From: Bacillota bacterium
GTDB lineage: Bacteria; Bacillota; Clostridia; SK-Y3
Assembly (NCBI GenBank): GCA_022360955.1
Contig: JAKSBV010000277.1
Span: 1 to 50,129 of the forward strand
Reading direction: 5' to 3'
Length of the DNA: 50,129 nucleotides
Positions 22,041 through 48,422 of the stretch are shown here, in pieces. The notes under the pieces were generated by a model, which worked only from the letters and a program-made list of their open reading frames with translations, ran no database searches and was not told the DNA's origin. The number at the start of each line of letters is the position of its first letter. Position 1 is the stretch's first letter. A program made the translations under genes and the position numbers.

Positions 22041-24344
22041 TTACCCGCACTTCGAATATCCGCAGTCCCTGCAGATAACACAGCCCCCTTCGTGCTCCAT
22101 CGGTTTTCCGCACTCGGGACACAATTTATGATACTCGGGTTGCTGCGGATTATTGCAAGTATCCTGTATCGTACCGGCAGCACAATCGGCAGCGCAGATG
22201 ATTTTCTCTTTCTCCGCCTCTGTCAGTTTTTCACCTTTGCTTCCGTTACCGTTTTGCAGCGTTGCCACTTTTTCTATGACCCGGGCAATGGCATCAGGAC
22301 AGGATAATACTTTCAAATCCCTCTGCCGGATGGTGGAAGGACAGCGAATGCCTCTTAGCTGCTCTAAAAGGGCATCAACATCTATCCCTGTCCTCAGTGC
22401 AATAGAGACCAGTCTGCTTGTTGCCTCGGACTGTGAAGGACACCCCCCCGCTTTGCCGGTATTGGTAAACACTTCACAGATGCCCTGCTCATCATAGTTC
22501 ACCGTAATGTACAGGTTGCCGCACCCTATTTTTACTTTTTCGGTAAAACCGGTCGTGACATTCGGTCTCGGCCTTGGGATAATACGGTGTTTCGGATGGC
22601 CCTGCACTGGCTGCACAGCCTTTTCTTTGCCCTTGACTTTACCTATGTTAAGCACCTGCAAATCACGGCTGCCGTCACGATATATGGTAACCCCTTTACA
22701 GCCCAGCGTATAAGCCCGCCTAAATACTTCCGCCACCTCCTCCTTTGTTGCTTCGTTTCTAAAATTGACTGTTTTGGACACAGCATTATCCGTATAGCTT
22801 TGGAAGGCCGCCTGCATTTTAATGTGCCATTCCGGTGAAACATCATGGGCAGTCACAAATACATGCTTAATGTGTTCGGGAATCTCCTCCAATGCATCAA
22901 TATGCCCTGTCCGTGCAATTTTTTTCATGAGTGCTTCCGAATAAAAACCTTCTTTTTGCGCTGCTTGCTTAAACACCGGATTCACTTCGATGAGTTCATC
23001 ATTGTCCATGACATTCCTGATATAGGACAAGGCAAATACCGGTTCCACGCCGCTGGAAACCCCGGCTATGATACTCAGGGTGCCCGTGGGCGCAATGGTT
23101 GTGATCGTAGCATTTCTTACCCGCAGACCCTGGGATTGATAGACACTTTTGTCGTACAACGGAAAGACCCCTCTTTGCTCGGCCAGCTCAACACTTGCCT
23201 GCCTGCCCTTCTCTTGAATAAACTGCATGATTTTTTCTGCAAGCCCGGTCCCTTCGGAGGAATGGTAGGACAGCCCCAATTTATACAACAAATCTGCAAA
23301 TCCCATGACACCCAATCCGATTTTTCTAGTCGCTTTGGTGACCTCTTCAATCTTTTTCAGAGGATATTTGTTGACATCAATCACATTGTCAAGAAAATGC
23401 ACCGCATGCTTTACGGTTGTTTCCAGCTTAGCATAATCTACCTCTACCTTGCCCTTTTGCTCTTTTGTCATAGCTGAGAGATTAATAGAGCCAAGATTAC
23501 ATGATTCATAGGGAAGCAGCGGTTGTTCTCCACACGGATTAGTGCTCTCAATCTCTCCGATCTCAGGCACCACATTATCTTTATTCAAACGATCCAAGAA
23601 GATAATACCCGGTTCTCCGTTTTGCCAGGCCGCATCGACAATCTTACGGAATACTTCCCGTGCATTCAGCCTGTTTACCGCTTTTTTCAAATACGGATCT
23701 ATGAGGTCGTATTCTTTGTTATCTTCTACCGCCTGCATAAATGCTTCCGTAACCCCTATACTGATATTAAAGTTATTGATTTCTGCGTTATCCTCTTTAC
23801 AGGTGATAAAGGACATAATTTCCGGATGGTCCACTCTCAAAATACCCATATTGGCGCCTCGGCGGGTTCCCCCCTGTTTGACAGCTTCAGTCGCTGCATT
23901 AAACACTTTCATAAAACTGATGGGGCCGCTCGCCACCCCGCCGGTAGAGTTGACTGCCGAGCCTTGAGGTCTCAAACGTGAAAAGCTGAACCCTGTACCT
24001 CCTCCGCTTTTATGGATCATCGCGGCCTGTTTAATCGCTTCAAAAATCCCCTCCATACTGTCTTCAACAGGCAGCACAAAACAAGCACTTAGCTGGCCCA
24101 ACGGTCTTCCCGCATTCATAAGCGTAGGAGAATTGGGCAAAAATTCAAGTTTGGACATCATATCAAAAAAGATCTGCTCCGTCTGTTTCATCTCTGCCTT
24201 TGCATCATAATGCCCATCAGCCTGTGCAATGGTTCGGGCAACCCTTCTAAACATTCCCTCCGGTGTCTCCAGAAGCTTTCCAACCTCATCTTTAGCAAGA
24301 TATCTTTTTTCAAGCACTTTTACAGCATTTTGCGTTAAGTACAT
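22041..24344 (-). CDS. nrdJ: B12-dependent ribonucleotide reductase (class II)
   Basis: From ATG 24344 the protein is 767 residues and begins [23 protein letters not shown] lies 7 bases upstream, so I prefer this over an in-frame ATG 21 bases earlier that overlaps the ribosome site. Landmarks are [20 protein letters not shown] with the first active-site Cys, [20 protein letters not shown] with the radical Cys, [17 protein letters not shown], and a C-terminal zinc-type segment CPECGKP to [10 protein letters not shown]. Class II enzymes use adenosylcobalamin, need no oxygen and reduce ribonucleotides to deoxyribonucleotides in the cytoplasm. Two NrdR boxes in the promoter point to control by the NrdR repressor. 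Confidence 0.97.
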
Positions 24345-24389
24345 CTTACTTCCTCCCCGTTCCACATTTAGTATTTTATTTAATGCTTA

Positions 24390-24732: not shown

Positions 24733-26346
24733 ATGCAAGTAGTCGATTTATTAAAATTAGATAAAAAATTTAAAGATATACATGTCATAGCCGGTAAAAA
24801 AGGGTTGAGCAGGGTTATAAAAGATATCGAAATCCTGGAAATTCCTGACGGTGTGTACTGGTTGGAAGAAGGAGATTTTATCATAACAACCGGTTATATA
24901 TTTCAAAATAACCAAGCTGATCTGTACAACACAATAGAAATCATAAGCAAAAAAGGTGCCGGGATCGGTATAAAAACCGGAAGATTTATTAAAAAGATTT
25001 CTGCTGAGGTCATCGCATTGGCTGACAAACTCAACTTTCCCATACTGGAAATACCCGTACAACTGGGATATAGTGATTTCATATGGCCGATTGTCAGTAA
25101 ATTGCTGAATGATAAAAGCTATACCACCTTTGTGTTTGAGCAATTTCATGATAATCTTACGGCAATCGTTAACCGGGGATTCAGCATTGATCATATTTTA
25201 CATCTTTTAAAAAACTATATCGATCTGCCGGTTGTACTGCTTTCCAAACACTATAAGCTTATAAAGTGTATAACCGATACTTCGGATAGCACGGATAATC
25301 TTCCGATCGATACTATCATAAAAGCCATTGATGATAACACAGAACATATACGGTCGATGAATTCGCCGTTTGTGTATGAAAACGAGGGGCATACCTATCA
25401 TATTTTCCCCATTAGGTCCCCAAAGCAGCTGCTCGGTTATTTATGTACAATAGGTTGTACAAGCCCAAAGGGTTCAAATTGCTTAAACACTTTACTAATT
25501 GATGAAGTCATCCCATATGTTATTATATGGATGATTTCAAACAATAAAAATAATATTTATTATAGATCTAAAAAAGACCTCTTGCTTGATTTGATTTACG
25601 GCAATTATACCAATGACATTGATATAATCAATGAAACGAAATATTTGGGACTGGATATTGATATGAAAAGCCTTTTATGGATCATGCGTTTGAGTGAAAC
25701 TAAAACAACCTATGACCCGGACAAAAACGCAAATATTCAAACAGTGCATCATTTTCTTGTAAAGCAATACCCAGACAATATATTCTTAACAGATAAGAAC
25801 AAGATATTATGCATTCATCCTGTGCCCCATGAAGATCAGGTATTGACCTCTTGCGGCTTTGAGGATCTGCTGACAGATATGAAGGAAAAATTTCCCCAAT
25901 ATGAATTTAAAATCGGCGTAAGTACGCCCTACAAGTCTCTGCTTGACATAAAGTATGCTTACCAGGAAGCACGAACTTGCATCGAACTGGGCACTCAAAT
26001 CGGTGGTCTGGCGTCAAATCTATATTTCTATAAAGATCTGACAGCTTACCATCTTGTTTATGAGTTTGCCAGCCATCCCCTTATGATAAAATTGTATGAC
26101 AACACCATTAAAAAATTGGCAAGCTTTGATTTGAAGCATAAAAGTGAATTAATCAGAACGCTTTCAACTTTTATATATTGTGATTTTAATATACGTAAAA
26201 CGGCTGAAAATCTGTTTGTACACAGAAACACTTTATATAAAAGGCTGGAAAAAATAGATGAGATCACTACTTACAACCTCAACAGCAATGAAGGAAAACT
26301 AATATTATCGCTGGCCTTAAAGCTTCATGAAATTAAGAGCATGTAA
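24733..26346 (+). CDS. PucR-family transcriptional regulator
   Basis: The 537-residue protein has an N-terminal PucR domain (about 5-125, with HVIAGKKGLSRVIKDIEILE and GDFIITTGY), a middle CdaR or GGDEF-like region (about 280-410, with KIGVSTPYKSLLDIKYAYQE) and a C-terminal PucR-type helix-turn-helix (about 475-530, with NIRKTAENLFVHRNTLYKRL). GGGAGA precedes the ATG. The family activates catabolic genes for purines, allantoin, amino acids and similar nitrogen compounds in response to a pathway ligand. It faces, tail to tail, the eight-gene cluster that ends at 26373, and I infer that it regulates that cluster. Confidence 0.92.
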   Translation: MQVVDLLKLDKKFKDIHVIAGKKGLSRVIKDIEILEIPDGVYWLEEGDFIITTGYIFQNNQADLYNTIEIISKKGAGIGIKTGRFIKKISAEVIALADKLNFPILEIPVQLGYSDFIWPIVSKLLNDKSYTTFVFEQFHDNLTAIVNRGFSIDHILHLLKNYIDLPVVLLSKHYKLIKCITDTSDSTDNLPIDTIIKAIDDNTEHIRSMNSPFVYENEGHTYHIFPIRSPKQLLGYLCTIGCTSPKGSNCLNTLLIDEVIPYVIIWMISNNKNNIYYRSKKDLLLDLIYGNYTNDIDIINETKYLGLDIDMKSLLWIMRLSETKTTYDPDKNANIQTVHHFLVKQYPDNIFLTDKNKILCIHPVPHEDQVLTSCGFEDLLTDMKEKFPQYEFKIGVSTPYKSLLDIKYAYQEARTCIELGTQIGGLASNLYFYKDLTAYHLVYEFASHPLMIKLYDNTIKKLASFDLKHKSELIRTLSTFIYCDFNIRKTAENLFVHRNTLYKRLEKIDEITTYNLNSNEGKLILSLALKLHEIKSM

Positions 26347-26376
26347 AAAAGAGAGGGGATTCCCTCTCTTTTTTAC
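26343..26376. terminator. Bidirectional terminator between converging genes
   Basis: Arms GTAAAAAAGAGAGGG and CCCTCTCTTTTTTAC flank a GATT loop. The stem covers the stop codons of both the PucR-type gene and the aminopeptidase-like gene, and there is a U run on either strand, so one structure can end both transcripts. Confidence 0.92.
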
Positions 26377-27419
26377 AACAGCTTCTCAGTCAAATTAACA
26401 AGGCTTTCGGGATAAATAACCTTGCCCGTATCCATGATCTGCCTGCCGTCCAGCCATACCGACGAATTTAAACAAATGCCGTCCGTATGTGACGGGGCGG
26501 GAACACCTCCGGGAATATCGGGAACAAGTCTGGGACCAATATTGCCGATACCCCATTCTGTGGAGCCCCATACCCTCTCGTCTTCCACAATATCTCCCGT
26601 CAATTTTGCACCAGGGTTAAAGCTATAGGATATATGGGCCATTAAGAACATATTCTCATCATTAAACTTATTCAGCCAAGTTTCCAGCTGCTGTGCGTCT
26701 TTTCCCCCTTCAATTTTTACGATTTTGCCTTTTTCCACATGAAGCTTTATCGGGGTTTGTAAAAGTCCGATGGGAGGATAGACCGAACCGTCAAAAACGA
26801 TAACTCCATTAATGGTCTCAAATATCGGCGTCCAGCTGATTTGCCCCGGTAGCATTTCATAGGTCCCTTTAGGCACAATGCCGGAATGTACAATCATTTC
26901 TCTATCCGGATGATTGTTAAAACTTATATCCGTACCGGCCGGTGTTGTAATACGCACCTCTTTCGCTTTTCCCGTTATATCGGATATTTCATTTAAAAAT
27001 TGTTCAAGTGTGGGTATATCTACTCTGCCTATGGTACGTATCATCATATCGGCATTCATCCCTACAAGACATATATATCGGATTGTCTTATTCAACGCCA
27101 TGGTTTTATCAAAAGGCGTGGAGTATAACAGCCATTGATAATTGAATTCAATCCATACGTCCGCTTTAGACAAAGCCCCTATCAATGCCTCTTGAGGCAG
27201 CATGGGATCAGCCGCTTTTCCCACTCCCAGAGGCGAAGCCAGCCATATGACCATTGGCTTGGCACCCACATTAAATACTGCCTGTGCCGCCGCATTGACC
27301 ACTTCTTCTTTAGATCCCGTATCCGCAGTGATGATAACCGTTTCTCCTGCTTCCACCCTGAGAATATCATCGATTAACGTTTTCGCTGCCCTTCCTATTT
27401 CAAATTCATATAACCTCAT
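26373..27419 (-). CDS. M29/NicX-like metallopeptidase-fold protein 1
   Basis: The 348-residue protein belongs to the group annotated as leucyl aminopeptidase (aminopeptidase T) or NicX-like. Visible family features are DILRVEAGETVIITADTG near the start, ADVWIEFNYQWLLYSTPF, and likely metal ligands in the C-terminal third: a Glu in STEWGIGNIGP and the His and Asp of PSHTDGICL. M29 enzymes are cobalt or zinc aminopeptidases with broad specificity; NicX members open a pyridine ring with iron. The gene is last in the minus-strand cluster, beside an OPT transporter, which favours a role in hydrolysing an imported peptide-like compound. Which chemistry it performs is open. Confidence 0.8.
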   Translation of the reverse strand: MRLYEFEIGRAAKTLIDDILRVEAGETVIITADTGSKEEVVNAAAQAVFNVGAKPMVIWLASPLGVGKAADPMLPQEALIGALSKADVWIEFNYQWLLYSTPFDKTMALNKTIRYICLVGMNADMMIRTIGRVDIPTLEQFLNEISDITGKAKEVRITTPAGTDISFNNHPDREMIVHSGIVPKGTYEMLPGQISWTPIFETINGVIVFDGSVYPPIGLLQTPIKLHVEKGKIVKIEGGKDAQQLETWLNKFNDENMFLMAHISYSFNPGAKLTGDIVEDERVWGSTEWGIGNIGPRLVPDIPGGVPAPSHTDGICLNSSVWLDGRQIMDTGKVIYPESLVNLTEKLL

Positions 27420-27449
27420 AGACCCCCTCCTTTACAATTCCGGGTTATA

Positions 27450-29072
27450 TTATTTCTTGCCCAGTCTTAAAGTGGATGAGAAGAAACTATATAACGCCGC
27501 GCCCGTAATAAATCCTGCACCCAGCACATAAAGTGCGTTTTGACCCTCTTCTCCGTATTTTTTAATCACTAATTTTCTTATGATTAAACCTACCAGAACG
27601 GTAATACCGGCTATCGGGAAGTTAATCAGCAGCCCTGTAGAGAATAGTACGCCAAGCTGTCTTTGTTGTCCTCCGAGTAACTGTATGATCGCACCGGGTA
27701 TCGCCCATAGTAAAAGATTTGTTGCAACAGCCATGCTTGTTCCGGCTTCTATCGTTGCCACATAAACTCTGTTAACAGGCGGAAACAAATCTTTTGCGAA
27801 ATAAAATTGATAGAACAAAGCAACCATAATAACGGCTACAATAATACTGATGGCCTCGGATATATATTGCTGTTTTCGCCCCTGTTTTTCAAATTCCGGG
27901 TCCTGTCCCCGGCCTCTGATCACCCAGCCGGCTTTAAAATCATAGGCCATATCTGCAAAAGCCGGACCTGTTGCTGCTGTAAAACCTACCAGCAACGCCA
28001 GCGGCACGGCAGGAAATCCGAAAAGCATCCCCAGTACCAGGAAAATCAAAGCCGTTGCGAAGGCAGGGAACCAGCCGGAATGCATCGCCGCAATACCCAC
28101 AATAAGTTCGGAAACCATAGCCGCTACCGCAGCAAATATAATCCAGGCAATAAACATCCCTAGGGACATATGAGAGATCAATCCGCCGATCACGGCTAGG
28201 ATCAATGCGATCACCATATAGGCCACAAATCCTTTGCCAAGGCCTGCTTTAAGTTCATCTTTGGTTCGGGTGCAATTTAGTTTCTGTTTGGCGCTGTCCT
28301 GGGATTTCTGCATGATTTTTTGAATAATTTGAACCAAAGCCACAATGCCGGCACCTATCATCATGCCGTGAGGCAAATACATTTTGTTAAGATCTACGCC
28401 AAAAAATTGCGGTACATACCCTCTAATGATAAGACCCAATCCGAACATAAACAATGCCGCCATATTTCCGATCCAGGTAACACCGAATACATCTGTTGGG
28501 ATTTTAAAGACTTTACCTATGACTCCGCCCACGATTCCATAAACCAACAGCAATGCCTTTTTCCCCTTATTGGCTGCTGCAAACAGTGCCTCGGCAGTGG
28601 CAATCCCCGGCGGCCAGGTGCCTTGCGCGGGAAAAACTTCCGTATCAAAACTCCAGTATAATATCGTCGCGTCAGTAATACAGGCAAGGGCCGCACCAAT
28701 TAACATGGGTATGACAAGCTCATGTTTTCCCATTAGATACGGAATACCGATCGGCAGCAACAACGCATTGGCTGCGGAAAAGGTTGCCCCGGAAATAGCG
28801 GTTTGCACAAGGTTCTGTCTGTTTAAATTTTTATAGTTTCTAAAAAAATTCAGCGGAATCCTCGCTATTAATATAGCAATAAGTGCGCCTACAATAGAAG
28901 TATTGGTACTAATACCTAGTCTTGTGATCAGTTCCAAACCTATGATAGCACCCAGCGCGGCTACAATAACGTTTAGAATAATCGTACCCGGCTCTAAGGC
29001 TGAAGGATGCTTTTTCGGCAATCCGTCAGGATTTACCTTCGCTTCACCGTTCACTAAACCGTTTGTTCCCAT
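27450..29072 (-). CDS. OPT-family transporter
   Basis: The 540-residue membrane protein has about 14-16 helices. The OPT pattern is clear in LNRQNLVQTAISGATFSAAN and WSFDTEVFPAQGTWPPGIATAE, which in this family contributes to the substrate and proton path. OPT members take up small peptides, glutathione-like thiols or metal chelates with protons. GAGGAGAACAG precedes the ATG. It lies between two M29/NicX-like genes, 30 and 47 bases from them, so uptake and hydrolysis are probably coupled. The substrate cannot be read from the sequence. Confidence 0.88.
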   Translation of the reverse strand: MGTNGLVNGEAKVNPDGLPKKHPSALEPGTIILNVIVAALGAIIGLELITRLGISTNTSIVGALIAILIARIPLNFFRNYKNLNRQNLVQTAISGATFSAANALLLPIGIPYLMGKHELVIPMLIGAALACITDATILYWSFDTEVFPAQGTWPPGIATAEALFAAANKGKKALLLVYGIVGGVIGKVFKIPTDVFGVTWIGNMAALFMFGLGLIIRGYVPQFFGVDLNKMYLPHGMMIGAGIVALVQIIQKIMQKSQDSAKQKLNCTRTKDELKAGLGKGFVAYMVIALILAVIGGLISHMSLGMFIAWIIFAAVAAMVSELIVGIAAMHSGWFPAFATALIFLVLGMLFGFPAVPLALLVGFTAATGPAFADMAYDFKAGWVIRGRGQDPEFEKQGRKQQYISEAISIIVAVIMVALFYQFYFAKDLFPPVNRVYVATIEAGTSMAVATNLLLWAIPGAIIQLLGGQQRQLGVLFSTGLLINFPIAGITVLVGLIIRKLVIKKYGEEGQNALYVLGAGFITGAALYSFFSSTLRLGKK

Positions 29073-29119
29073 CTGTTCTCCTCCTTTTATGATATTATTT
29101 ATTTAAAAGCATACAGCTT

Positions 29120-30079
29120 CTAAACCGAAATCATCAAATTTCCTTCCTTTATCACCGGCACCTCATCAATATACACTGTCGGTTTTAAGGTCACACAATC
29201 AATATGTGAAGGGGCTTTAATACTGCCTCCGAAGGTTATGTTGGTGCCAAAAGCAATATGGACCGAACCATAGATTTTTTCATCTTCCAATATGACCCCG
29301 GTCAAACGTGCCATAGGATTGGTGCCAATCCCTAATTCTCCGATTGTCCGGGACAAAATATTGTCCGGGATCGCTTTGTCCACTGCTGCCCCAAGAGAAC
29401 CCTTTATATCCGCAATACGGCCTTTTTGCAATCGAAGCACCACAGGATCACGCAGCTGTCCGATGCCTACGATACTTCCATCCACCAAGAATTCCCCTTC
29501 GGCTCTATCTTCTACAGGAGCGATATAGGCCTCTCCCGAAGGCAGGTTCCCGCTTGCTCCTTTTTCTCTGTATACACCGGTGCTGGCAACGCCCCTGCGC
29601 CCTTCAAGATCCATAATCAATTCATATTTTCCGCCGGTCAAAACTCTGCATTGCTTGGCGTTAGACAATATCTCGGCAAGCTTAACCGTTATTTGTTCGA
29701 CTTCCATATAATCTGCCGATATCGGCCCTTTGCAGAACATTTCTTCCGTGATACCGGGCATGGTAGCGATTCTCGCTCCTGCCTTTACAGCCTCCAATCT
29801 GGCATTGGTGTGGGTAAGGGATTTACTGGTCGGACATAAAACTACATCTGCATTTTGCATAGCCTGACTTATCAATTCCGGCGGTTCCTGACCGCTCACT
29901 TCTCTCGGACGAATCACAGCAAGTACAGCATCGCTGCCCAATTCGATTGCCTTATGATATAGGGCCCTGCCTATATTCATTTTTTCATCATCGGTAACCA
30001 CCAGCACTTTTTCTCCCCTTTTTAAATCCAAACACTTTCTCAATACGATCTCACTGCCTCTCTCAAGGCCGTTTCCCAT
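29120..30079 (-). CDS. M29/NicX-like metallopeptidase-fold protein 2
   Basis: I choose ATG 30079 because GAGAGGTGTGGGC lies just upstream and the gene then starts 26 bases after the AroM stop; the longer frame from 30127 would overlap aroM by 23 bases without a better site. The 319-residue product begins MGNGLERGSEIVLRKCLDLK. It is a distant paralog of the protein at 26373-27419: ADVVLCPTSKSLTHTNARLE, then a Glu in GELGIGTNP and His and Asp in PSHIDCVTL. Two unlike copies around one transporter suggest either a heteromer or two successive steps. Family membership is well supported, activity is not. Confidence 0.78.
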   Translation of the reverse strand: MGNGLERGSEIVLRKCLDLKRGEKVLVVTDDEKMNIGRALYHKAIELGSDAVLAVIRPREVSGQEPPELISQAMQNADVVLCPTSKSLTHTNARLEAVKAGARIATMPGITEEMFCKGPISADYMEVEQITVKLAEILSNAKQCRVLTGGKYELIMDLEGRRGVASTGVYREKGASGNLPSGEAYIAPVEDRAEGEFLVDGSIVGIGQLRDPVVLRLQKGRIADIKGSLGAAVDKAIPDNILSRTIGELGIGTNPMARLTGVILEDEKIYGSVHIAFGTNITFGGSIKAPSHIDCVTLKPTVYIDEVPVIKEGNLMISV

Positions 30080-30104
30080 TTTGCCCACACCTCTCATCCT
30101 GTAT

Positions 30105-30779
30105 TCAAGCTTCTCCGAAAAGCTCATTGATCACCGCTGCCGCTAGAGTCCGCGGCAAGAGTACCGGTTTTCCCGTAATCTCTCTTACTTTTTGCTTCAT
30201 TTGTATGGTATAGCCCATACAATCCATAAAAATGACGGATACTTGCTTTGTCCTCAATCTCCGGGCAGCATCCTCTACCCCTTTAAACGCTTGGTAAGGA
30301 GAAGCAACTTCTACATCGACGTTTACACCGTTGTTATTCCACCAGTGGGTGATCTGATCTATTTGGTCTTTATCGGGAATAATCAACCCAACCGTGCTGC
30401 CGTCGGCTATTTTTGAAGTCACAGCATGGAGGAGCTCCTGTGGTTTTAACAATAATGTGTTATGCCGGAATGCCGGAAATTTACCGCTGCATACCATCAA
30501 TACGGCTTTTGCCCCTTGTGCTTCCAGCTTATGAATACAACTTTGCAGTAATGGCAGAATAGGCTGTTCCGCTATTTTTACCTGTCTGCCGTCACGCATA
30601 CGAGTAATTAAAATATCATCCCCTTTTTGAGGGCTGAACCGGCTGATAACCTCTTCATATGTGAACTCATCTAACGCACCGCTCTGGATAATGCTTATAT
30701 TGCCGCTGAGAACGGTTTCAATATCCGGAATCATATCATCCCGGGGTGATTGTCCTATGGTCACTACACCAATTTTCAT
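30105..30779 (-). CDS. aroM: AroM family protein
   Basis: The 224-residue protein starts MKIGVVTIGQSPRDDMIPDI and contains SGALDEFTYEEV and IFMDCMGYT, which are hallmarks of AroM (PF07302). AroM has no established function; it was named for its place in the aro regulon of Escherichia coli. Here it is in a catabolic cluster with a racemase-like protein, DUF917 and DUF1177. Its start overlaps the stop of the upstream unrecognised gene by 4 bases, so the two are coupled. Cys97 (in VLMVCSG) and Cys in FMDCMG lie where Asp/Glu racemase-like folds have catalytic cysteines, which is a suggestion only. Confidence 0.88.
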   Translation of the reverse strand: MKIGVVTIGQSPRDDMIPDIETVLSGNISIIQSGALDEFTYEEVISRFSPQKGDDILITRMRDGRQVKIAEQPILPLLQSCIHKLEAQGAKAVLMVCSGKFPAFRHNTLLLKPQELLHAVTSKIADGSTVGLIIPDKDQIDQITHWWNNNGVNVDVEVASPYQAFKGVEDAARRLRTKQVSVIFMDCMGYTIQMKQKVREITGKPVLLPRTLAAAVINELFGEA

Positions 30780-31630
30780 TGTTCTCTTCTCTCCTCTCCT
30801 AATCTGCCGCTTTTATACCCACAGCCTATGTGCCTTGCACAGCTTGCACAGGGTGCTTCACATTGAACCAAAGATTGCTTAATGCCCGACACGCCACAAT
30901 CCCTATCTTTGACGCTCTTTACAATTTCAATTAATTTTTCTATCTCTGCATCCTCACCCCGGGCCTCTAACGTTATACTGCCTTGACCGTCATCAATACC
31001 TCCGGCGCCAATTGCATAGCATTCCACATTTGCCAGATACTTTACGGCTTCTATTTCCGTAATCACTTCTCCCTGAATGGGCATTAACCCTACCGACATT
31101 CCCCAGGACAAATCTTTTCCTTTTCTGCCTGTCAGTCCTATGATTTCTTCCAAGCTGCCGGGTATGAGCTTCTCTATACCCACCGGAATCAGTATGGGAA
31201 TCCCTTCACTATACCAGGAACTGAGCGCTCGTCCTATATTTCCTCCCCCGGGGCTTCCGGCCATTAACGCTGCTCTTCCCTCACCGTCTATTGCATTGGC
31301 GCCGCAGATGATTAAATCATGCGGTCCGAGCCCCTGCATTTCTTCCGCTACACAATCGTCAATATTCTTGTATTTTCCCTTTTCAATCAAAACCGTATGG
31401 GGTCCGTCGGTGTTGATTAAATTTGCTACCGTACCCCTTCCCGTAATCCGTCCGCAAATTCTTAAAGCCTCTCCAATCAATATTTCCGCAATTTTAGAAA
31501 CTGTTGTACCGCCTTTGAGGACCACTTTACCGCTTCTGAGTGACCTATCCGTCAAAAAATGCCGTGCAACCCCATTTGCAATCATTTGTTTGCCCTCTTC
31601 TACCGTCAGCGTAAATTGGATTTTGCTCAT
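30776..31630 (-). CDS. Unrecognised protein with Cys-rich tail
   Basis: I do not recognise this 284-residue protein. It is soluble, rich in Gly and Ile, with LKGGTTVSKIAEILIG near the start, a NTDGPHTVLIEKGKYKNIDD segment, a Gly-rich stretch SPGGGNIGRALSSWYSEG around residue 130 and a hydrophobic ILIPVGIEKLIPG after it. Residues about 185-240 could be a small ferredoxin-like alpha-beta region. The C terminus holds CEAPCASCARHIGC, a C-x3-C-x2-C-x5-C pattern that could bind zinc or an iron-sulfur cluster. It lies between DUF1177 (2 bases) and AroM (4-base overlap), so it is surely translated with them. No function is proposed beyond a place in this pathway. Confidence 0.8.
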   Translation of the reverse strand: MSKIQFTLTVEEGKQMIANGVARHFLTDRSLRSGKVVLKGGTTVSKIAEILIGEALRICGRITGRGTVANLINTDGPHTVLIEKGKYKNIDDCVAEEMQGLGPHDLIICGANAIDGEGRAALMAGSPGGGNIGRALSSWYSEGIPILIPVGIEKLIPGSLEEIIGLTGRKGKDLSWGMSVGLMPIQGEVITEIEAVKYLANVECYAIGAGGIDDGQGSITLEARGEDAEIEKLIEIVKSVKDRDCGVSGIKQSLVQCEAPCASCARHIGCGYKSGRLGEERREQ

Positions 31631-31632
31631 AT

Positions 31633-32568
31633 TCAGCCTCCTCCCAGGGTCTGAAATTTGCGTAAATCCCCATAAAGCTTTACGATTTTTTCATATTCGT
31701 CTTGGTCGTAAAACACACATTTTCCTTCACCAAAGCTCTTCGCCACTTCAATGACAAAACGCCCCGCCGATTCCACATCTTCGGGATGACTCGCACCTGT
31801 CGCACAACCGGCAACGGAAGTTTCGGCCGTAATGGCCACACCCACAACCGGCGCCTCACTTGCAGCGGCAGGCTGCAGTATACTGTTGATGTGATATAAG
31901 CCGTTTCCATAGGGCGTAATATCCTGGTGGGCTACGGGGAAAACATGAGGAAGCCTGCCGGTTGTTCTGATCATGATATCCAATAAATCCTCACTAGTTT
32001 TTAATATATACCCTTCTTTGATTGTGGGAGATATGGCAAACCCCCGCGTATTGATCACTCTATTGCCTTTTGTCGTATCTATTGACAGTATGGCGTCCAT
32101 TTCCGGACAAACTTCTAATGCATTCATTGTCTGCATATCAATAGGAGAATCCATAAACGGCACCGGCTTATGCTCCCTCGTGGGCGCATCAGGACATATA
32201 TGCGTTGTGATGATCACATCACCTTGCAGTAAATCACCCCTGCTATACATATCCGTTAGTTTTAATGCGACAGCCAATGCTGCCAATGCACCGTCGCCAT
32301 CGGATACAAAACCGAGCATTTCGGGTCTTGCGCCCAAACCTCCAAGCCTTCCTATGATCCCAAGCGTAGGAGCTTTCCCACCGCCCGCCTTTCCGTCCTT
32401 TCCATAGATCACAATTTTGACAGCATCCGTTGTTCCTTTTTGACCCTCCACAGTTTTAACTTCTACGTTTTGCGCCCCTCGCGCCTTTAATAGCGATGCA
32501 GCCTCTTCACCGCCTGCATCCGGTTTATCCAATAGTTCAAACATTTCCAATACCTGTTTTAATATCAT
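31633..32568 (-). CDS. DUF1177 protein
   Basis: The 311-residue protein matches what I know of DUF1177: LEMFELLDKPDAGGEEAASL at the start, GRLGGLGARPEMLGFVSDGD, then ITTHICPDAPTREHKPVPFM and a C-terminal SHPEDVESAGRFVIEVAKSF. Conserved His, Asp and Glu residues in the THICPDAPT and SDGDG regions could bind a metal, as in peptidase or amidohydrolase folds, but this is inference. GGAGGATCAC precedes the ATG. The family has no known activity and is usually found with DUF917 and transporter genes. Confidence 0.82.
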   Translation of the reverse strand: MILKQVLEMFELLDKPDAGGEEAASLLKARGAQNVEVKTVEGQKGTTDAVKIVIYGKDGKAGGGKAPTLGIIGRLGGLGARPEMLGFVSDGDGALAALAVALKLTDMYSRGDLLQGDVIITTHICPDAPTREHKPVPFMDSPIDMQTMNALEVCPEMDAILSIDTTKGNRVINTRGFAISPTIKEGYILKTSEDLLDIMIRTTGRLPHVFPVAHQDITPYGNGLYHINSILQPAAASEAPVVGVAITAETSVAGCATGASHPEDVESAGRFVIEVAKSFGEGKCVFYDQDEYEKIVKLYGDLRKFQTLGGG

Positions 32569-32579
32569 TGTGATCCTCC

Positions 32580-33674
32580 TTAAACACCAAAGTGGTAACG
32601 AACCAACGGCTTATCTATAATCTTTTCAACTTCCTCAAAGAGTTCCTGATCATACATGCCTCTCCCTAATTTCAGAAACTTTTTAGGCACTTTGAGAAGT
32701 ACAACGGCATCCCCTTCACCGATACATGCACTGGTTTTAATCTCCCCCGTATTCCGGTCCAGGGCGGCAATAAGATCGGGAAAGCTGGCCAGCCTGTCTC
32801 CATTCCTTTCTATGGTCATATATTCATTCCAAAAAGAAGCCTCAACCTGTTGCGCACCATCGGTGATGTTGATTTTTCCCACATCAAAACCATCTCTGAT
32901 TTCTAAGGCGCAATGGTTAACAGTACCGGCTATTGCTACTTCAATATCCATGTGCTTCGATAATGCATCTAGGATTGCCCTACAGCTCCCTTCATTTTCC
33001 AAAAATATTTTCCCTATTTCAATAGCCTGTTTTAATGCACCCGGTGCAGCATTTTGTCTTAAATATCCGGCTTTGACACTATTTCTTAATACCGTAACCA
33101 AACCGCCGGCTTCTACCGCTGCACGCCTGACAAGGACCGAGGCCGCTTCAAGTCTGCCGTACACAGCCATCTCGGTATACTTACCCGTCTCTTCTTTACC
33201 GCCGACCGCTGCCTGACAGCTTTTATAAGCCGGCTCCATACTTAACCCCATGCTTCCCATCCGACCGGTGGGATGCGCTCTCCCGTTACAGGGTGCATCT
33301 ATGAGCGGGATGCCGGTAATCGCTGAGAGAACCCAGCCATTTGTCGTCGAATGCCCGCCATTTTCATTAGTAATAACGCCCCCGATAGACTGGTGGGAAA
33401 ACCCTTTGTACAGCTCTAAAGCCCTTTCACAATGCTCGACGGTTACGTAACCCTCTTGCGAAGCAGGCGAACCAACGGCAGAAGCTGTCACCACATTGGC
33501 ATCCTCCGGAACACAGTCAAGGGATACGATATTGATTTCTCCCAATTCCAGCGCTTCCAAGGCTGTGGCAAGCCCTGTATCCACAGACCCGCCTCCGCCT
33601 CCGCCCAAAAATGCTCCCCCCAATACCGCCGCTTTTGCCAGCTCAGGAGTAACTTTTATCCTATAACTCTCCAT
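32580..33674 (-). CDS. DUF917 protein (S-methyl-thiohydantoin desulfurase family)
   Basis: I choose ATG 33674 (MESYRIKVTPEL) because TTGGAGGGGAAT lies before it; an upstream in-frame ATG at 33713 is unsupported. The 364-residue protein has the Gly-rich start AAVLGGAFLGGGGGGSVDTG, and NENGGHSTTNGWVLSAITGI with PLIDAPCNGRAHPTGRMGSM, the core of DUF917. As I recall, this Pfam family is now named for S-methyl-thiohydantoin desulfurase and is related to hydantoinase-type (HyuA) proteins. With a hydantoin-racemase-like gene next to it, a cyclic amide or thiohydantoin substrate is possible. The name of the family is firm, the substrate is inference. Confidence 0.85.
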   Translation of the reverse strand: MESYRIKVTPELAKAAVLGGAFLGGGGGGSVDTGLATALEALELGEINIVSLDCVPEDANVVTASAVGSPASQEGYVTVEHCERALELYKGFSHQSIGGVITNENGGHSTTNGWVLSAITGIPLIDAPCNGRAHPTGRMGSMGLSMEPAYKSCQAAVGGKEETGKYTEMAVYGRLEAASVLVRRAAVEAGGLVTVLRNSVKAGYLRQNAAPGALKQAIEIGKIFLENEGSCRAILDALSKHMDIEVAIAGTVNHCALEIRDGFDVGKINITDGAQQVEASFWNEYMTIERNGDRLASFPDLIAALDRNTGEIKTSACIGEGDAVVLLKVPKKFLKLGRGMYDQELFEEVEKIIDKPLVRYHFGV

Positions 33675-33712
33675 ATTCCCCTCCAACATTTCTTCCAAAT
33701 CCCCCCACCCCA

Positions 33713-33800
33713 CTACTAACCTTTACCATCCGGCAAATATCCTACACACTACCCACCTACAAACCTTTACCGCCCAACAAACATCCTACCCACTACCAAC
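33713..33800. repeat. 44-bp direct tandem repeat in the cluster
   Basis: Two copies, 33713-33756 and 33757-33800, both read CTAC-T/A-AACCTTTACC at the start and ATCCTAC-x-CACTACC near the end. The plus strand is C-rich and the following 33801-33820 repeats CCACTACC words. On the transcribed strand it is G-rich, with several GGGTAGTGGG-like words. It lies in the 139-bp gap between the racemase-like gene and DUF917. Confidence 0.75.
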
Positions 33801-33813
33801 CACCCACTACCCA

Positions 33814-34461
33814 CTAACAAACCACTTTGCCCAGCATCACAATCCCTTCCGCTAAAACCGGGTCAACCACCGGTATTGAAATCTTTTCTTGCAAAAGGGC
33901 GGCAATACCGGCCGTGGACATACCGGTGCATGCCAATGCTATTGCCTGTGCTCCCTGCTCTTTCAATTGCATCCCGGCTTTAATCACCGCTTGTTGACCC
34001 TGCCGGGTCTGCAGATCCTTCGTCGTGTTGACCCCTTCGGGTCTTATATAGTTCACAGCTTTATCTCCCAAAATACAGTTATAGTTTGCAGGTGCTTTCT
34101 CTTCAATCCCAATGATGCCGATTTTATCACCAAAATTAAGGCTATAGGCCGCTGTTGCCGTACCGGCCCCTGTGACCGGAATAGAAAGCATTTTTTTTAA
34201 CTGCGCTACTGCCGGGTCTCCTGCACAACTGATAATAAGACCATCTATTGAACCGGCCCATGCTGTGGCGAGTCTTATGATTTTAGGCTCGGCAAGCTTT
34301 AAGGTTTGTTCATCATAAATCCCATCATATTGTTCTGGTATACACCGGGTTTCGGTCCGGAATTGCGGAAAGTACTTCTCTAATAAACGACCGTGCAAGT
34401 TCAATGCTTTTTGGTCGTCAGTTGTCAAGACTCTCAAAACACCTATCTTATATTTATTCAT
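33814..34461 (-). CDS. Asp/Glu/hydantoin racemase-like protein
   Basis: The 215-residue protein begins MNKYKIGVLRVLTTDDQ. It has the two catalytic cysteines of the Asp/Glu racemase superfamily, in LIISCAGDPAV (about residue 80) and AIALACTGMS (about residue 177), and an ATAAYSLNFGDKIGIIG segment like that of hydantoin racemases. The enzyme should interconvert stereoisomers of an amino acid or a hydantoin by deprotonation at the alpha carbon. It is first in the cluster, with its promoter presumably within 34462-34620. The precise substrate is not visible. Confidence 0.85.
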   Translation of the reverse strand: MNKYKIGVLRVLTTDDQKALNLHGRLLEKYFPQFRTETRCIPEQYDGIYDEQTLKLAEPKIIRLATAWAGSIDGLIISCAGDPAVAQLKKMLSIPVTGAGTATAAYSLNFGDKIGIIGIEEKAPANYNCILGDKAVNYIRPEGVNTTKDLQTRQGQQAVIKAGMQLKEQGAQAIALACTGMSTAGIAALLQEKISIPVVDPVLAEGIVMLGKVVC

Positions 34462-34687
34462 AGCAATCTCCCCTATCAGTATTGTAAATGATGTGTTTTA
34501 AAATGGAATTGATGTTTTCTTTGAATATTTATAAAAGTCATTTTGCAATATATGGTTAAGCAAAATTCATTCTATAATAAGTATTCTGTAAAAAAAGAAA
34601 ATATTCCTCTGTGCAAATACACACTGTTTTCACCCCTAAAATGTACATAGTGTATCGTTAAATTTTTCTGCTAAAATCTGAATTTTT

Positions 34688-34696
34688 TGATATAAT
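34688..34696 (+). promoter_or_regulatory. Extended -10 promoter of pepD
   Basis: TGATATAAT combines a TATAAT hexamer (34691-34696) with the TG of an extended -10. No good -35 is present at 17 bp (CTGCTA), which fits an extended -10 promoter that may need an activator. The transcript would have a leader of about 190 bases. Confidence 0.5.
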
Positions 34697-34828
34697 TTAT
34701 AAGAGGGCATAAAAAATGCTCCCATTCAAATGTTAAATTTTTTACAATCAAATGCTTAGCTTTTGAGTATCAATTGATGGAATAGGATTGGCATTTCTAA
34801 GTTTAAGGTTTTTGATCCATTCATAAAT

Positions 34829-34862
34829 GTTCCGATATGTTTTGCAAAGCATATAGAGGAAC
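34829..34862 (+). promoter_or_regulatory. Palindrome in the pepD leader
   Basis: The segment GTTCCGATATG - TTTTGCAAAG - CATATAGAGGAAC is a dyad with GTTCC/GGAAC and ATATG/CATAT arms around a TTTGCAAA core. It ends about 7 bases before the pepD ribosome site. It could be an operator or an RNA stem that limits ribosome access. Confidence 0.5.
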
Positions 34863-34891
34863 AATATTTATTACGGAAAGGGTGTATATTA

Positions 34892-36358
34892 ATGGAGAAT
34901 GTATTAGGCCAACTGGAGCCGCAATCGGTGTTCAAGTACTTCGAAGACATGTCCCGCATCCCCAGAGGTTCGGGAAAGGAAAAGGAAATCAGCGACTATC
35001 TGGTTCAGTTTGCAAAAGATCATCGTTTGGAAGTGATTCAGGATGAAATCTATAACGTCATCATCAAAAAACCGGCGACACCCGGATATGAAACAGCACC
35101 TCCTGTCATTATTCAGGGGCATATGGATATGGTGTGCGAAAAGAATAGGGACACGGTTCATGATTTTGCAAAAGATCCGCTGAAATTGCAAATCAAAGGA
35201 GATATGATATACGCAACGAACACGACCCTCGGTGCCGACAACGGGATTGCCGTCGCCTATGCCCTTGCGATACTGGCCTCGGACACCATTCCCCATCCTT
35301 CTCTTGAAGCATTGATAACCGTCCAAGAAGAAATCGGCTTAAAAGGTGCCGCTGCTTTAGATGCAAGCCATCTTGACGGGAAATACCTTATTAATCTCGA
35401 CTCGGAAGAAGAGGGGAAACTGCTGGTCAGCTGCGCAGGGGGAGTGCGTACGACGCAAAGCATTCCTGTCACTTGGGAAGCACCATGCGGTGAAAATCTT
35501 GCGGCTTACCGGATCAGTATCACAGGGCTTAAAGGCGGCCATTCCGGCATGGACATTCACAGGGGGAGAGGAAATGCCAATAAGCTGATGGGCCGATTCT
35601 TAAATGCGCTGACTTCGGCATTTGCGTTTTCAATAAAAGAGATAAACGGGGGCGCTAAAATGAATGCGATCCCTCGCGAAGCAGAGGCCGTCATCTTAAC
35701 GAATGCCGATAACAGCAGCGAATTACAAAATAGAATCGAAACATGGCAAAAGACCTTTGAAAATGAGCTAAGAACCTCAGATCCCGGAGTGATGCTGACG
35801 TTTCAAAGGCTGCAAATGCCTGTTGCAAAAGTATTGTCTAAAGAAACAGAGCATAAGGTCATTGCTTCTTTAGTCCTGATCCCAAACGGTGTACAAAGTA
35901 TGAGCATGGATATCGAAGGGCTGGTTGAAAGTTCGACAAACCTGGGTGTTGTGAAGACGACAGATAAAGATGTATTGTTCGAAAGTGCCGTCAGAAGTTC
36001 CGTCAAAAGTTTGAAATATACTATATTGCACCAAAGCAAAATGGTTGCTGATATTTTAGGCGTACGGCTCACTACAGATTCCGATTACCCCGAGTGGCAA
36101 TATAACCCGGACTCCAAAATGCAGGCAATCTGCGAACGGGTCTATAAAGAGAAATACGGCGCAGCGCCCGAGATAATTGCTCTTCACGCGGGCGTGGAGT
36201 GCGGCCTGCTCAAAGAAAAGAAAAACGATCTGGATATGATCTCCTTTGGACCGAACATGTATGACGTACATACACCCAACGAGCATTTGAGCATATCTTC
36301 CACGAAGCATACATGGGAATACCTGCTGGCGGTTTTAAAAGAAATGAAACATGCATAA
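34892..36358 (+). CDS. pepD: Aminoacyl-histidine dipeptidase (peptidase D)
   Basis: The 488-residue M20-type enzyme has the metal-site residues in IIQGHMDMVCEKN (His, Asp), DNGIAVAYAL (bridging Asp), EEIGLKGAAALD (catalytic Glu and ligand Glu), LDSEEEGKLLVSCAGG and HAGVECGLL near the end (His). KGGHSGMDIHRGRGNANKLM is also a PepD hallmark. It hydrolyses dipeptides, classically Xaa-His such as carnosine, and other small peptides, in the cytoplasm with two zinc ions. GGAAAGGGTG precedes the ATG. It diverges from the eight-gene cluster, so it may act on the same imported peptides. Confidence 0.96.
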   Translation: MENVLGQLEPQSVFKYFEDMSRIPRGSGKEKEISDYLVQFAKDHRLEVIQDEIYNVIIKKPATPGYETAPPVIIQGHMDMVCEKNRDTVHDFAKDPLKLQIKGDMIYATNTTLGADNGIAVAYALAILASDTIPHPSLEALITVQEEIGLKGAAALDASHLDGKYLINLDSEEEGKLLVSCAGGVRTTQSIPVTWEAPCGENLAAYRISITGLKGGHSGMDIHRGRGNANKLMGRFLNALTSAFAFSIKEINGGAKMNAIPREAEAVILTNADNSSELQNRIETWQKTFENELRTSDPGVMLTFQRLQMPVAKVLSKETEHKVIASLVLIPNGVQSMSMDIEGLVESSTNLGVVKTTDKDVLFESAVRSSVKSLKYTILHQSKMVADILGVRLTTDSDYPEWQYNPDSKMQAICERVYKEKYGAAPEIIALHAGVECGLLKEKKNDLDMISFGPNMYDVHTPNEHLSISSTKHTWEYLLAVLKEMKHA

Positions 36359-38436: not shown

Positions 38437-39783
<1,347 letters not shown>

Positions 39784-40245: not shown

Positions 40246-41637
40246 CTATTCGTTTTTTAAATATTTATCAATGGCTTCCGCCGCATCTTTTCCGGCACCC
40301 ATTGCAAGAATAACCGTAGCCGCACCGGTTACTGCGTCACCTCCGGCATAGACACCTTCTATGCTGGTTGCGCCTGTGCTTTCTTCTGTAATAATCCCTC
40401 CCCATCGGTGGGTATCCAATCCTTCGGTGGTGGATTTAATCAATGGATTAGGGGATTGTCCGATTGCAACAATTACCGTTTCAACGGGAATCACATACTC
40501 GGACCCTTGTTTGGCAACCGGTCTTCTTCTGCCCGATTCGTCCGGCTCACCCAGCTCCATCTCAATGCATTCCATTCCTTTGACCCATCCGTCCTCGGTA
40601 CCGAGAATACGTGTAGGGTTGGTTAACAGCTTAAAGATAATGCCTTCTTCTTTTGCATGATGTACTTCTTCCAGCCTTGCCGGCAATTCTGTCTCCGAAC
40701 GCCTGTAAACAATATATACTTCTTCCGCTCCCAATCTTTTGGCACTTCGCGCCGCGTCCATCGCCACATTTCCGCCGCCGATCACGGCTACTCTTTTCCC
40801 TACTCTCACCGGGGTATCAGTCTGCGGGAATGTATAGGCTTTCATCAGATTGATCCGGGTTAAAAATTCATTGGCAGAATAAACACCGTTTAAGTTTTCA
40901 CCGGGAATATTCATGAATCTGGGTAGCCCGGCGCCTGAACCTATAAAAACAGCTTCAAAGCCTTCTTCCCTTAGTTCCTCGATGGAATATACCTTCCCGA
41001 TCACCATATTGGTCTGAATACCGACGCCCATTTCTTTCAAGGTATTGATTTCTTTTGTTACGATTTCCTTAGGCAGCCGGAATTCGGGAATACCATACAT
41101 TAATACACCGCCAGGGGTATGGAATGCCTCAAAAATGGTTACATCATATCCCTTTTTGGCCAGGTCCCCTGCACAGGTAAGCCCTGCAGGACCCGCCCCT
41201 ATCACCGCTACTTTCTTTCCGTTGGACGCCGCTTTCTCTATGTGATCCTCTACATGGGCCATATGCCAATCGGCTACAAATCTTTCAAGTCTGCCGATGC
41301 CTACCGATTCACCCTTTTTTGTTCTTACACAAAGCTCTTCACATTGGGTTTCCTGGGGACAGACTCTACCGCAAATGGCCGGAAGGGCATTGGTTTCTTT
41401 CACCTTTTGGTAGGCGCCTTCAAAATCTCCCTCAGCCACCAATTTTATAAATTCAGGTATCTGCACATTCACAGGACATCCCTTTATACATGGCTTATGC
41501 TTGCACTGCAGACATCTTTCCGCTTCTTCTTTGGCCATTTCTTCCGTATAGCCCAATGTAACTTCTTCGAAGTTCTGATTCCTGATCTTAGGATCCTGTT
41601 CAGGCATTTTAACTTTTTCAAGGGACATATTAGGCAT
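40246..41637 (-). CDS. nfnB: NfnB-like large subunit, NADPH:ferredoxin oxidoreductase
   Basis: I choose ATG 41637 (MPNMSLEKVKMPEQD) because AGGGGGTGC precedes it and family members start the same way; it overlaps the nfnA stop by 8 bases. The 463-residue protein has two [4Fe-4S] motifs near the start (CLQCKHKPCIKGCP and CGRVCPQETQCEELC), an FAD site VAVIGAGPAGLTCAGDLAKK and an NADPH site VAVIGGGNVAMDAARSAKRL. It resembles the small subunit of glutamate synthase, but no large subunit is present and the next gene encodes an NfnA-type protein. The pair therefore fits the electron-bifurcating NfnAB transhydrogenase (NADPH with NADH and ferredoxin). Glutamate synthase small subunit is the alternative name. 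Confidence 0.88.
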   Translation of the reverse strand: MPNMSLEKVKMPEQDPKIRNQNFEEVTLGYTEEMAKEEAERCLQCKHKPCIKGCPVNVQIPEFIKLVAEGDFEGAYQKVKETNALPAICGRVCPQETQCEELCVRTKKGESVGIGRLERFVADWHMAHVEDHIEKAASNGKKVAVIGAGPAGLTCAGDLAKKGYDVTIFEAFHTPGGVLMYGIPEFRLPKEIVTKEINTLKEMGVGIQTNMVIGKVYSIEELREEGFEAVFIGSGAGLPRFMNIPGENLNGVYSANEFLTRINLMKAYTFPQTDTPVRVGKRVAVIGGGNVAMDAARSAKRLGAEEVYIVYRRSETELPARLEEVHHAKEEGIIFKLLTNPTRILGTEDGWVKGMECIEMELGEPDESGRRRPVAKQGSEYVIPVETVIVAIGQSPNPLIKSTTEGLDTHRWGGIITEESTGATSIEGVYAGGDAVTGAATVILAMGAGKDAAEAIDKYLKNE

Positions 41638-45269: not shown

Positions 45270-45290
45270 TTCCAATTTCACCTCACGTTT

Positions 45291-45458
45291 AGTGGGGAGT
45301 GGGGAGCCGGGAGCCGGGAGTCATTTGAACTCTCACTCTTACGCACTCTACACTGTACCCCTTTTCATTTTCCACATTTATAATAAGCATTGTAAACAGT
45401 CGGGACAAAGCATGAGGCTGCAGCTCTTCGCTCCTCACACCCTACTCCCTGCTATCCT
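45291..45458. repeat. Inverted heptad-repeat blocks between rnfA and rnfB
   Basis: The left block 45291-45318 reads AGTGGGG twice and AGCCGGG twice. The right block 45424-45458 reads CTCTTCG, CTCCTCA, CACCCTA, CTCCCTG, CTATCCT. The left is purine-rich and the right its rough complement, so the 180-bp gap may fold as one large stem-loop in the rnf transcript. Confidence 0.65.
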
Positions 45459-45461
45459 TAC

Positions 45462-46645: not shown

Positions 46646-46664
46646 TTCTTTTCCTCCCCCCTGC

Positions 46665-48231: not shown

Positions 48232-48251
48232 TTGTAACCCCCCGCTTTTTG

Positions 48252-48416
48252 TAATGAATAATTAATAATGAAGAATTAATAATTGGAAAAACCGCGTTCA
48301 CATTTGTAAATGGATTTTTATACTGAACCCTCTACGCCTCTATATATAATACCAAACAAAATGATTAACGATCATTTTGTTACACTCATTATTCATTATT
48401 AATTATTAATTGTTCA
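48252..48416. repeat. Inverted heptad-repeat blocks between rnfC and rnfD
   Basis: The left block 48252-48286 reads TAATGAA, TAATTAA, TAATGAA, GAATTAA, TAATTGG. The right block 48389-48416 reads TTATTCA, TTATTAA, TTATTAA, TTGTTCA and is roughly its complement. Inside, 48355-48381 is an 11-bp perfect stem (AACAAAATGAT with ATCATTTTGTT around TAACG). It interrupts the rnf operon. Confidence 0.65.
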
Positions 48417-48422
48417 TTGCTT

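What the first reader, a model, noticed from the sequence alone, without database searches (positions are those of the whole stretch)
24733..36358. Putative catabolic system: PucR regulator, racemase-like, DUF917, DUF1177, unknown protein, AroM, two M29/NicX-like proteins, OPT transporter, PepD
Eight minus-strand genes from 34461 down to 26373 are packed with spacings from 4-base overlaps to 139 bp and include four with no established activity (DUF1177, AroM, DUF917 in this setting, and an unrecognised protein). Gene content suggests import by an OPT carrier, then ring or amide chemistry on a hydantoin-like or peptide-like compound, with stereoinversion by the racemase-like enzyme and final hydrolysis by peptidases. 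A PucR-type regulator, typical for ureide and purine degradation, faces the cluster and pepD diverges from it. I know of no described pathway with this full set.
Basis: partly seen in the sequence, partly recalled or inferred. Interest (0 to 1): 0.82.

Follow-up and report, generated by a model that had tools for sequence, protein, structure and literature searches.

The report
Widespread cyclic-peptide salvage gene cluster (predicted)

Summary
In detail: eight minus-strand genes (26373-34461) flanked by a PucR-type regulator and PepD. The gene order is not a local oddity. Rac-DUF917-DUF1177-(unknown)-AroM-M29-OPT recurs across Bacillota families, in Synergistota and in a Thermococcus. DUF1177 and AroM co-occur in 36 genomes where about 5 would be expected (p about 1e-36), yet DUF1177 was not found in the 14 same-class genomes of that sample, nor DUF917 in five same-family genomes: a mobile catabolic cassette. 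Two forms exist: OPT with DUF917 (15 of 15 loci) or Opp transporter without DUF917 (0 of 9).

Best mechanism (inferred, about 0.45): salvage of cyclic diamides, most likely 2,5-diketopiperazines. Rac has the hydantoin-racemase CxxDP/CTG dyad but not the allantoin-binding threonines; its relative NozR isomerises a diketopiperazine. Peptidases in these clusters are dipeptidases, and no N-carbamoylase was found in this genome. Two sister loci carry cyclodipeptide-oxidase-like genes.

A 2024 paper reported hydantoin racemase, DUF917, AroM, OPT and peptidases around such oxidases, so the idea is not wholly new. New here: DUF1177 as constant partner with a zinc-aminopeptidase-like fold lacking the usual ligands; the unnamed family; the two cassettes; the spread. 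Substrate unproven.

The parts
24733..26346 (+). PucR-type regulator (PucR N-domain, GGDEF-like, HTH_30)
   Evidence: PF07905 E 4e-28, PF13556 2e-18, PF17853 5e-13; PucR present in 13 of 15 OPT-type loci of the phylum sample
26373..27419 (-). M29b: M29/NicX-fold metalloprotein with H262, H311, D313; not a canonical M29 aminopeptidase
   Evidence: Best solved relative NicX E 8e-10, aligned over nearly the full length; H265, H318 and D320 of NicX are kept, S302 and R293 are not; 73% identical copy in Thermococcus L136
27450..29072 (-). OPT-family transporter, probable importer
   Evidence: PF03169 E 3.5e-23; OPT and DUF917 together in 15 of 15 OPT loci
29120..30127 (-). M29a: probable M29 metallo-aminopeptidase (E199, E264, H290, H308, D310)
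   Evidence: PF02073 E 3.6e-14; E199/E264/H290 align with E250/E316/H345 of aminopeptidase T 2ayi; the PSHID motif aligns with the H318/D320 motif of NicX
30105..30779 (-). [quoted passage not shown]
   Evidence: PF07302 E 2.5e-79; conserved Cys pair; genome co-occurrence with DUF1177
30776..31630 (-). Unnamed family, 284 aa, weakly ISOCOT/DeoR-sensor-like, with a C-terminal Cys/His-rich tail
   Evidence: No Pfam/NCBIfam match; best relevant Pfam hint among 35 relatives is DeoRC E 0.003; AF2 pLDDT 91.6; Foldseek only weak eIF2B/ribose-1,5-bisphosphate isomerase matches E 4e-3; matches in 107 of 398 genomes of the phylum
31633..32568 (-). DUF1177: divergent zinc-aminopeptidase-like (M17/M28/M20 type) fold, canonical metal ligands apparently not conserved
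   Evidence: PF06675 E 2.6e-135; AF2 pLDDT 87.7; Foldseek PDB E 1.2e-8, probability 1.00 to M17/M28/M20 enzymes; invariant residues of A4
32580..33713 (-). DUF917 / S-Me-THD-like protein: candidate ring-opening cyclic amidohydrolase
   Evidence: PF06032 and PF20906 about 1e-21; thiohydantoin desulfurase models below cut-off; direct upstream neighbour of DUF1177 in 18 of 43 loci
33814..34461 (-). Rac: hydantoin-type racemase, Cys79 (SCAGDP) and Cys178 (ACTGM)
   Evidence: PF01177 E 1.1e-20; 2eq5 P. horikoshii hydantoin racemase E 9e-64; C79, D82, P83, C178 invariant in 22 cluster homologues
34892..36358 (+). PepD, Xaa-His-type dipeptidase (M20), divergent from Rac
   Evidence: TIGR01893 623.9 bits, cut-off 343.75; PepD lies inside the same cluster in L083

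Best explanation
A laterally spread catabolic operon that salvages small cyclic or stereochemically awkward peptide-like diamides, most likely 2,5-diketopiperazines (cyclic dipeptides). Inferred steps: the OPT carrier imports the compound; Rac, perhaps with AroM, inverts the alpha-carbon by a two-cysteine mechanism so that D or mixed isomers reach the configuration the hydrolases accept; DUF917 opens the ring amide by hydrolysis; the linear dipeptide is cut by M29a and PepD, possibly also DUF1177, and the amino acids enter fermentation. PucR switches the operon on. DUF1177, M29b and the unnamed protein have no assigned step; DUF1177 is a divergent peptidase-fold protein and could be the ring-opening or an accessory amidase. 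Shown here: gene content, conserved order, co-occurrence, folds and active-site residues. Inferred: substrate, direction, every reaction. That it is one catabolic unit for peptide-like amides I hold at about 0.85; the diketopiperazine substrate class at about 0.45.
For: Conserved order across families, phyla and domains (near-complete sets in L083 Tissierellia and L136 Thermococcus). DUF1177/AroM genome co-occurrence 36 observed, about 5 expected, p 1e-36. OPT-DUF917 linkage p 5e-9. Rac belongs to the hydantoin/allantoin subgroup (CxxDP motif, 2eq5 E 9e-64), lacks the allantoin-contacting T118/T119 of KpAllR, with Gly-Ile at those columns in the window (PMC12661438), and NozR of this family isomerises cyclo-Trp-Trp with a Cys dyad. 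Peptidases sampled in sister clusters are dipeptidases or aminopeptidases: PepV over cut-off, PepE over cut-off, PepD here over cut-off. No TIGR01879 N-carbamoylase above cut-off in this genome, which a hydantoin would call for. Cyclodipeptide-oxidase-like genes (nitroreductase + DUF6092, matching AlbA and AlbB) sit beside the cassette in L185 and, fused, in L127. Anaerobic context (Rnf, GDH, B12-dependent RNR).
Against: No substrate, transcript or enzyme data exist. Whether OPT carriers take diketopiperazines is unknown to me. Two sister clusters (L109, L131) carry a cytosine/purine-type permease and/or a carbon-nitrogen hydrolase instead, which fits a ureido or hydantoin compound better. Only two loci of those examined had a cyclodipeptide-oxidase pair, and this genome has no DUF6092 match. 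DUF917 ring-opening of a six-membered ring is unproven. An N-carbamoylase of another family cannot be excluded.
Confidence: 0.45

Rival explanations
1. Hydantoin (or thiohydantoin) catabolism: Rac is a hydantoin racemase, DUF917 opens the five-membered ring to an N-carbamoyl amino acid, and a peptidase-like protein (DUF1177 or M29) acts as N-carbamoylase.
For: Rac 2eq5-like; DUF917 family has thiohydantoin-acting members in NCBIfam; cytosine/purine-type permease plus carbon-nitrogen hydrolase next to DUF1177-AroM in L131, and the same gene types by clustering in L109.
Against: No TIGR01879 N-carbamoylase over cut-off in the genome; the peptidases sampled in sister clusters are dipeptidases or DapE-like; peptide transporters rather than hydantoin permeases dominate; DUF917 here scores well below the thiohydantoin models.
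Confidence: 0.2
2. Use of linear peptides with D-, beta- or iso-residues (for example wall-derived or aged peptides): OPT or Opp imports, two epimerases fix D residues, peptidases finish.
For: OPT and Opp carriers interchangeable; PepD, PepE, PepV, M29, M20.
Against: Two-cysteine racemases of the CxxDP subgroup are known on cyclic diamides, where the alpha-proton is acidic (PMC12661438, PMC10156859), not on internal residues of linear peptides; DUF917 would have no obvious role.
Confidence: 0.2
3. Allantoin/purine-derived ureide degradation under PucR control.
For: PucR-type regulator; Rac related to allantoin racemases.
Against: Allantoin-contact threonines replaced; PucR replaced by IclR in sister clusters; PucR-type regulators control many unrelated pathways (own knowledge; the HMM hits include AdeR, CdaR and PmfR).
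Confidence: 0.05
4. Biosynthesis or tailoring of a cyclic-peptide-like metabolite rather than catabolism.
For: PMC11055893 offers this for oxidase-like clusters; NozR and OpaE are biosynthetic.
Against: No cyclodipeptide synthase or NRPS among the cluster genes, an importer-type carrier, several peptidases, no oxidase partner (DUF6092) found in this genome.
Confidence: 0.1

Closest known systems
Non-CDPS cyclodipeptide-oxidase-like gene clusters (PMC11055893)
   Same: PF01177 racemase, DUF917, AroM, OPT or ABC peptide transporter, peptidases; oxidases reported in Clostridium, Blautia and Thermococcus
   Different: No CDO pair in the window (DUF6092 absent from its genome); DUF1177, M29b and the unnamed family are not described there
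NozR, diketopiperazine D/L isomerase (PMC10156859)
   Same: PF01177, cysteine dyad, cyclic diamide chemistry
   Different: Biosynthetic context; the window protein's closest solved relative is P. horikoshii 2eq5
Hydantoin utilisation (hydantoin racemase, hydantoinase, N-carbamoylase, Mhp1 carrier)
   Same: PF01177 racemase and a predicted ring hydrolase
   Different: No classical hydantoinase in the cluster, no HyuC-type N-carbamoylase over cut-off in the genome, OPT instead of Mhp1
Thiohydantoin desulfurases (NF058529, NF058532)
   Same: Same superfamily as the DUF917 protein
   Different: 273 of 440 and 260 of 450 bits: not members
M17/M28/M20 zinc aminopeptidases
   Same: Fold of DUF1177 (Foldseek probability 1.00)
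   Different: Position of the first His ligand appears as Arg74 and the Glu-Glu pair as Pro-Asp; no sequence-profile support

Membership tests
Hydantoin/allantoin-type PF01177 racemase (Rac) | two catalytic cysteines | tested here: met
   C79 and C178 invariant in 22 homologues
Allantoin racemase (Rac) | allantoin-contact Thr118/Thr119 of KpAllR | tested here: not met
   aligned positions are Gly-Ile in the window (residues from PMC12661438): not filed as an allantoin racemase
Asp/Glu racemase superfamily (AroM) | cysteine pair in matching motifs | tested here: met
   C97 and C187 conserved across the aligned AroM homologues; weak PF01177 match E 0.013
Thiohydantoin or S-methyl thiohydantoin desulfurase (DUF917) | NCBIfam equivalog cut-offs 440 / 450 bits | tested here: not met
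   272.8 and 260.2 bits
M29 aminopeptidase (M29a) | Pfam cut-off and five metal ligands | tested here: met
   52.8 bits over 27; E199, E264, H290 align with 2ayi; H308 and D310 by the shared HxD motif only
NicX 2,5-dihydroxypyridine dioxygenase (M29b) | Fe ligands H265, S302, H318, D320 | tested here: not met
   both His and the Asp align, S302 does not; anaerobic genome context
Zinc aminopeptidase clan (DUF1177) | shared fold | tested here: met
   Foldseek E 1.2e-8, probability 1.00, TM about 0.5
Zinc aminopeptidase clan (DUF1177) | canonical H/D/E-E/D/H metal ligands | tested here: inconclusive
   D90/D92 and D164 kept, first His and the Glu pair appear lost; read from motif positions and one weak profile alignment, not from a superposition
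Non-CDPS CDO-like cluster | CDOA+CDOB pair in the cluster | tested here: not met
   no DUF6092 in the genome; present in sister loci L185 and L127
Hydantoin utilisation pathway | N-carbamoylase present | tested here: not met
   TIGR01879 not over cut-off in the genome; other amidase families not tested
Diketopiperazine catabolic pathway | ring opening and growth on cyclic dipeptides | not testable with these tools
   needs enzyme assays and growth tests

The most novel reading that the evidence does not exclude
A general, laterally moving diketopiperazine catabolic pathway shared by bacteria and archaea, with stereoinversion before ring opening, in which DUF1177 is a new amidase family on a zinc-aminopeptidase fold with a changed active site, AroM is a cyclic-diamide epimerase, and the unnamed family adds a further step.
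Probability: 0.3. Interest if true: 0.72.

Novelty: new variant of a known kind. Interest (0 to 1): 0.55.

Why it matters
Cyclic dipeptides are common products of heated food, microbes and protein breakdown, and I know of no well-defined bacterial route that uses them. If this cassette is that route, it would give functions to DUF1177, AroM (an E. coli gene of unknown role) and an unnamed family, and explain why these families travel together in gut anaerobes, soil bacilli, a Klebsiella plasmid and archaea.

Tried and rejected
Purine/ureide reading: rejected on racemase residues and regulator swaps. M29b as a dioxygenase: ligand set incomplete and the genome looks anaerobic. DUF1177 as a plain M42/M20 peptidase: profile comparison gave no significant match, only the fold does. 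The unnamed protein as a cyclodipeptide oxidase: no nitroreductase match. Short relatives of the unnamed family (about 265 aa, roughly 30-37% identity) lie next to unrelated genes (UvrB, pyruvate-formate-lyase-like, tRNA nucleotidyltransferase), so their context gave no clue. Promoter and terminator scans gave no more sites than shuffles. Literature searches for a cyclic dipeptide hydrolase cluster returned nothing; DUF1177 appears in one unrelated paper.
Full report
Observation. The window is one contig of a 4.64 Mb genome. The eight minus-strand genes have gaps of 100, 11, 2, -4, -23, 47 and 30 bp, with plausible ribosome sites upstream of most of them, so a single transcript is likely. PepD diverges across 430 bp; PucR converges on the end of the operon.

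Conservation. I searched the unnamed protein in 398 genomes of the phylum, fetched its neighbourhoods and mapped the window genes onto them: DUF917-DUF1177-unknown-AroM-M29a recurs in order in several families. A scan of public genomes with a DUF1177 alignment gave 80 loci, among them Bacillota, Actinomycetota, Synergistota, Halomonadaceae, Bathyarchaeota and Thermococcus; AroM lay in the same fetched locus (up to 10 kb on each side) in 57 of them. L083 (Tissierellia) has PucR-OPT-M29b-M29b-PepD-Rac-DUF917-DUF1177-AroM-unknown, and L136 (Thermococcus) has Rac-DUF917-DUF1177-AroM-M29a-OPT-M29b with 73% identity in M29b and 65% in OPT. Plasmid copies exist in Klebsiella (OPT-DUF1177-AroM-PepE-Rac), Paenibacillus and the haloarchaeon Salinigranum. 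The 80 loci are the closest matches and overlap in part with the phylum sample, so for counts I rely on that sample.

Counts. DUF1177 is in 46 of 398 genomes and strong AroM matches in 41 (my count of matches at E below 1e-10); 36 have both (Fisher p 1.3e-36; genomes are related, so this p value overstates independence, but 37 genera hold DUF1177). Of 43 loci with a DUF1177 reading frame, 15 have OPT and all 15 also have DUF917; 9 have an Opp-type binding protein without OPT and none of these has DUF917 (OPT x DUF917 p 5e-9). So two interchangeable cassettes share DUF1177, often AroM and often Rac. In the phylum sample no DUF1177 was found in the 14 same-class genomes shown, and DUF917 was in none of five same-family genomes: patchy, probably laterally acquired.

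Parts. Rac is closest to a P. horikoshii hydantoin racemase (2eq5, E 9e-64). C79, D82, P83 and C178 are invariant in 22 cluster members. In the profile alignment to KpAllR the two substrate-binding threonines (T118, T119; PMC12661438) are Gly-Ile in the window. The same family contains NozR, which isomerises cyclo-Trp-Trp through a cysteine pair (PMC10156859), and OpaE, which acts on a fused cyclic peptide (PMC12661438). AroM keeps two cysteines. M29a keeps the M29 ligands as far as they could be aligned (which residues are ligands in aminopeptidase T is from my own knowledge); M29b resembles NicX but lacks one of its four iron ligands. DUF917 belongs to the superfamily of thiohydantoin desulfurases but is below their cut-offs; the only solved relative found is a hypothetical protein, 2o3i.

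DUF1177. AlphaFold gave pLDDT 87.7, and Foldseek matched M17, M28 and M20 zinc peptidases at E about 1e-8 with probability 1.00. TM-scores are about 0.5 and rmsd is high, so this is a fold-level relation. No solved protein matches by sequence, and profile comparison to M42 and M20 alignments was not significant. From motif positions, D90/D92 and D164 fit the bridging and later Asp ligands, whereas the first His appears as R74 and the Glu pair as P126-D127. I therefore call it a divergent peptidase-fold protein of unknown chemistry.

The unnamed family. Confident AlphaFold model (pLDDT 91.6), weak Foldseek matches to eIF2B and ribose-1,5-bisphosphate isomerase and weak DeoR-sensor hits: probably ISOCOT-like. 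By my count, about 15 of 19 long-form relatives sit beside Rac, DUF917 or DUF1177, while the short form, with one weak exception (L065), does not. Its C-terminal Cys/His tail (window CEAPCASCARHIGCGY) is shared by the long form.

Substrate logic. A hydantoin would give an N-carbamoyl amino acid; no TIGR01879 N-carbamoylase was found over cut-off in this genome. A diketopiperazine would give a dipeptide; the clusters carry PepD, PepV and PepE, or M29. Cyclodipeptide-oxidase-like genes are adjacent in L185 (nitroreductase, then DUF6092) and fused in L127 from a Blautia; the fused protein matches albonoursin synthase AlbA (E 2e-22) and AlbB (E 4e-5), the separate DUF6092 protein matches AlbB only weakly (E 0.02). 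This joins the window cassette to the clusters noted in PMC11055893. L131, with a cytosine/purine-type permease and a carbon-nitrogen hydrolase, and L109 with the same gene types speak for a wider substrate range and are the main evidence against a single substrate class.

Verdict. Interest 0.55.

Noticed in passing
window 44295-49766 (-): Rnf complex (RnfC, D, G, A and B by HMM; the 46040-46645 gene between G and A is probably RnfE), followed by an Nfn-like pair (40246-42475) and NADP glutamate dehydrogenase (38437-39783): an anaerobic energy-metabolism block.
   Followed up: partly
window 22041-24365 (-): B12-dependent ribonucleotide reductase (NF006417, 1234 bits over 961).
   Followed up: yes
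L074, L075, L078, L079: Clostridioides difficile strains carry DUF1177 next to an M20 peptidase and two probable membrane proteins, without AroM nearby.
   Followed up: no
L102, L120, L123, L139: Bathyarchaeota keep DUF1177 in a different conserved neighbourhood that includes a methionine-aminopeptidase-like gene (my reading of the sequence).
   Followed up: no
L032: A long-form relative of the unnamed protein lies in a run with an amidase-like protein, a YhfS-like aminotransferase and a class I tRNA synthetase domain protein.
   Followed up: no
L034, L040, L049: A second cluster type has the unnamed family with Rac, DUF917 and M29-like genes and an Opp transporter but no DUF1177 in the stretch.
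   Followed up: partly
L132:13422-14852: DUF5058 and a second predicted membrane protein, then an M20 peptidase, follow the Blautia caecimuris cassette.
   Followed up: no
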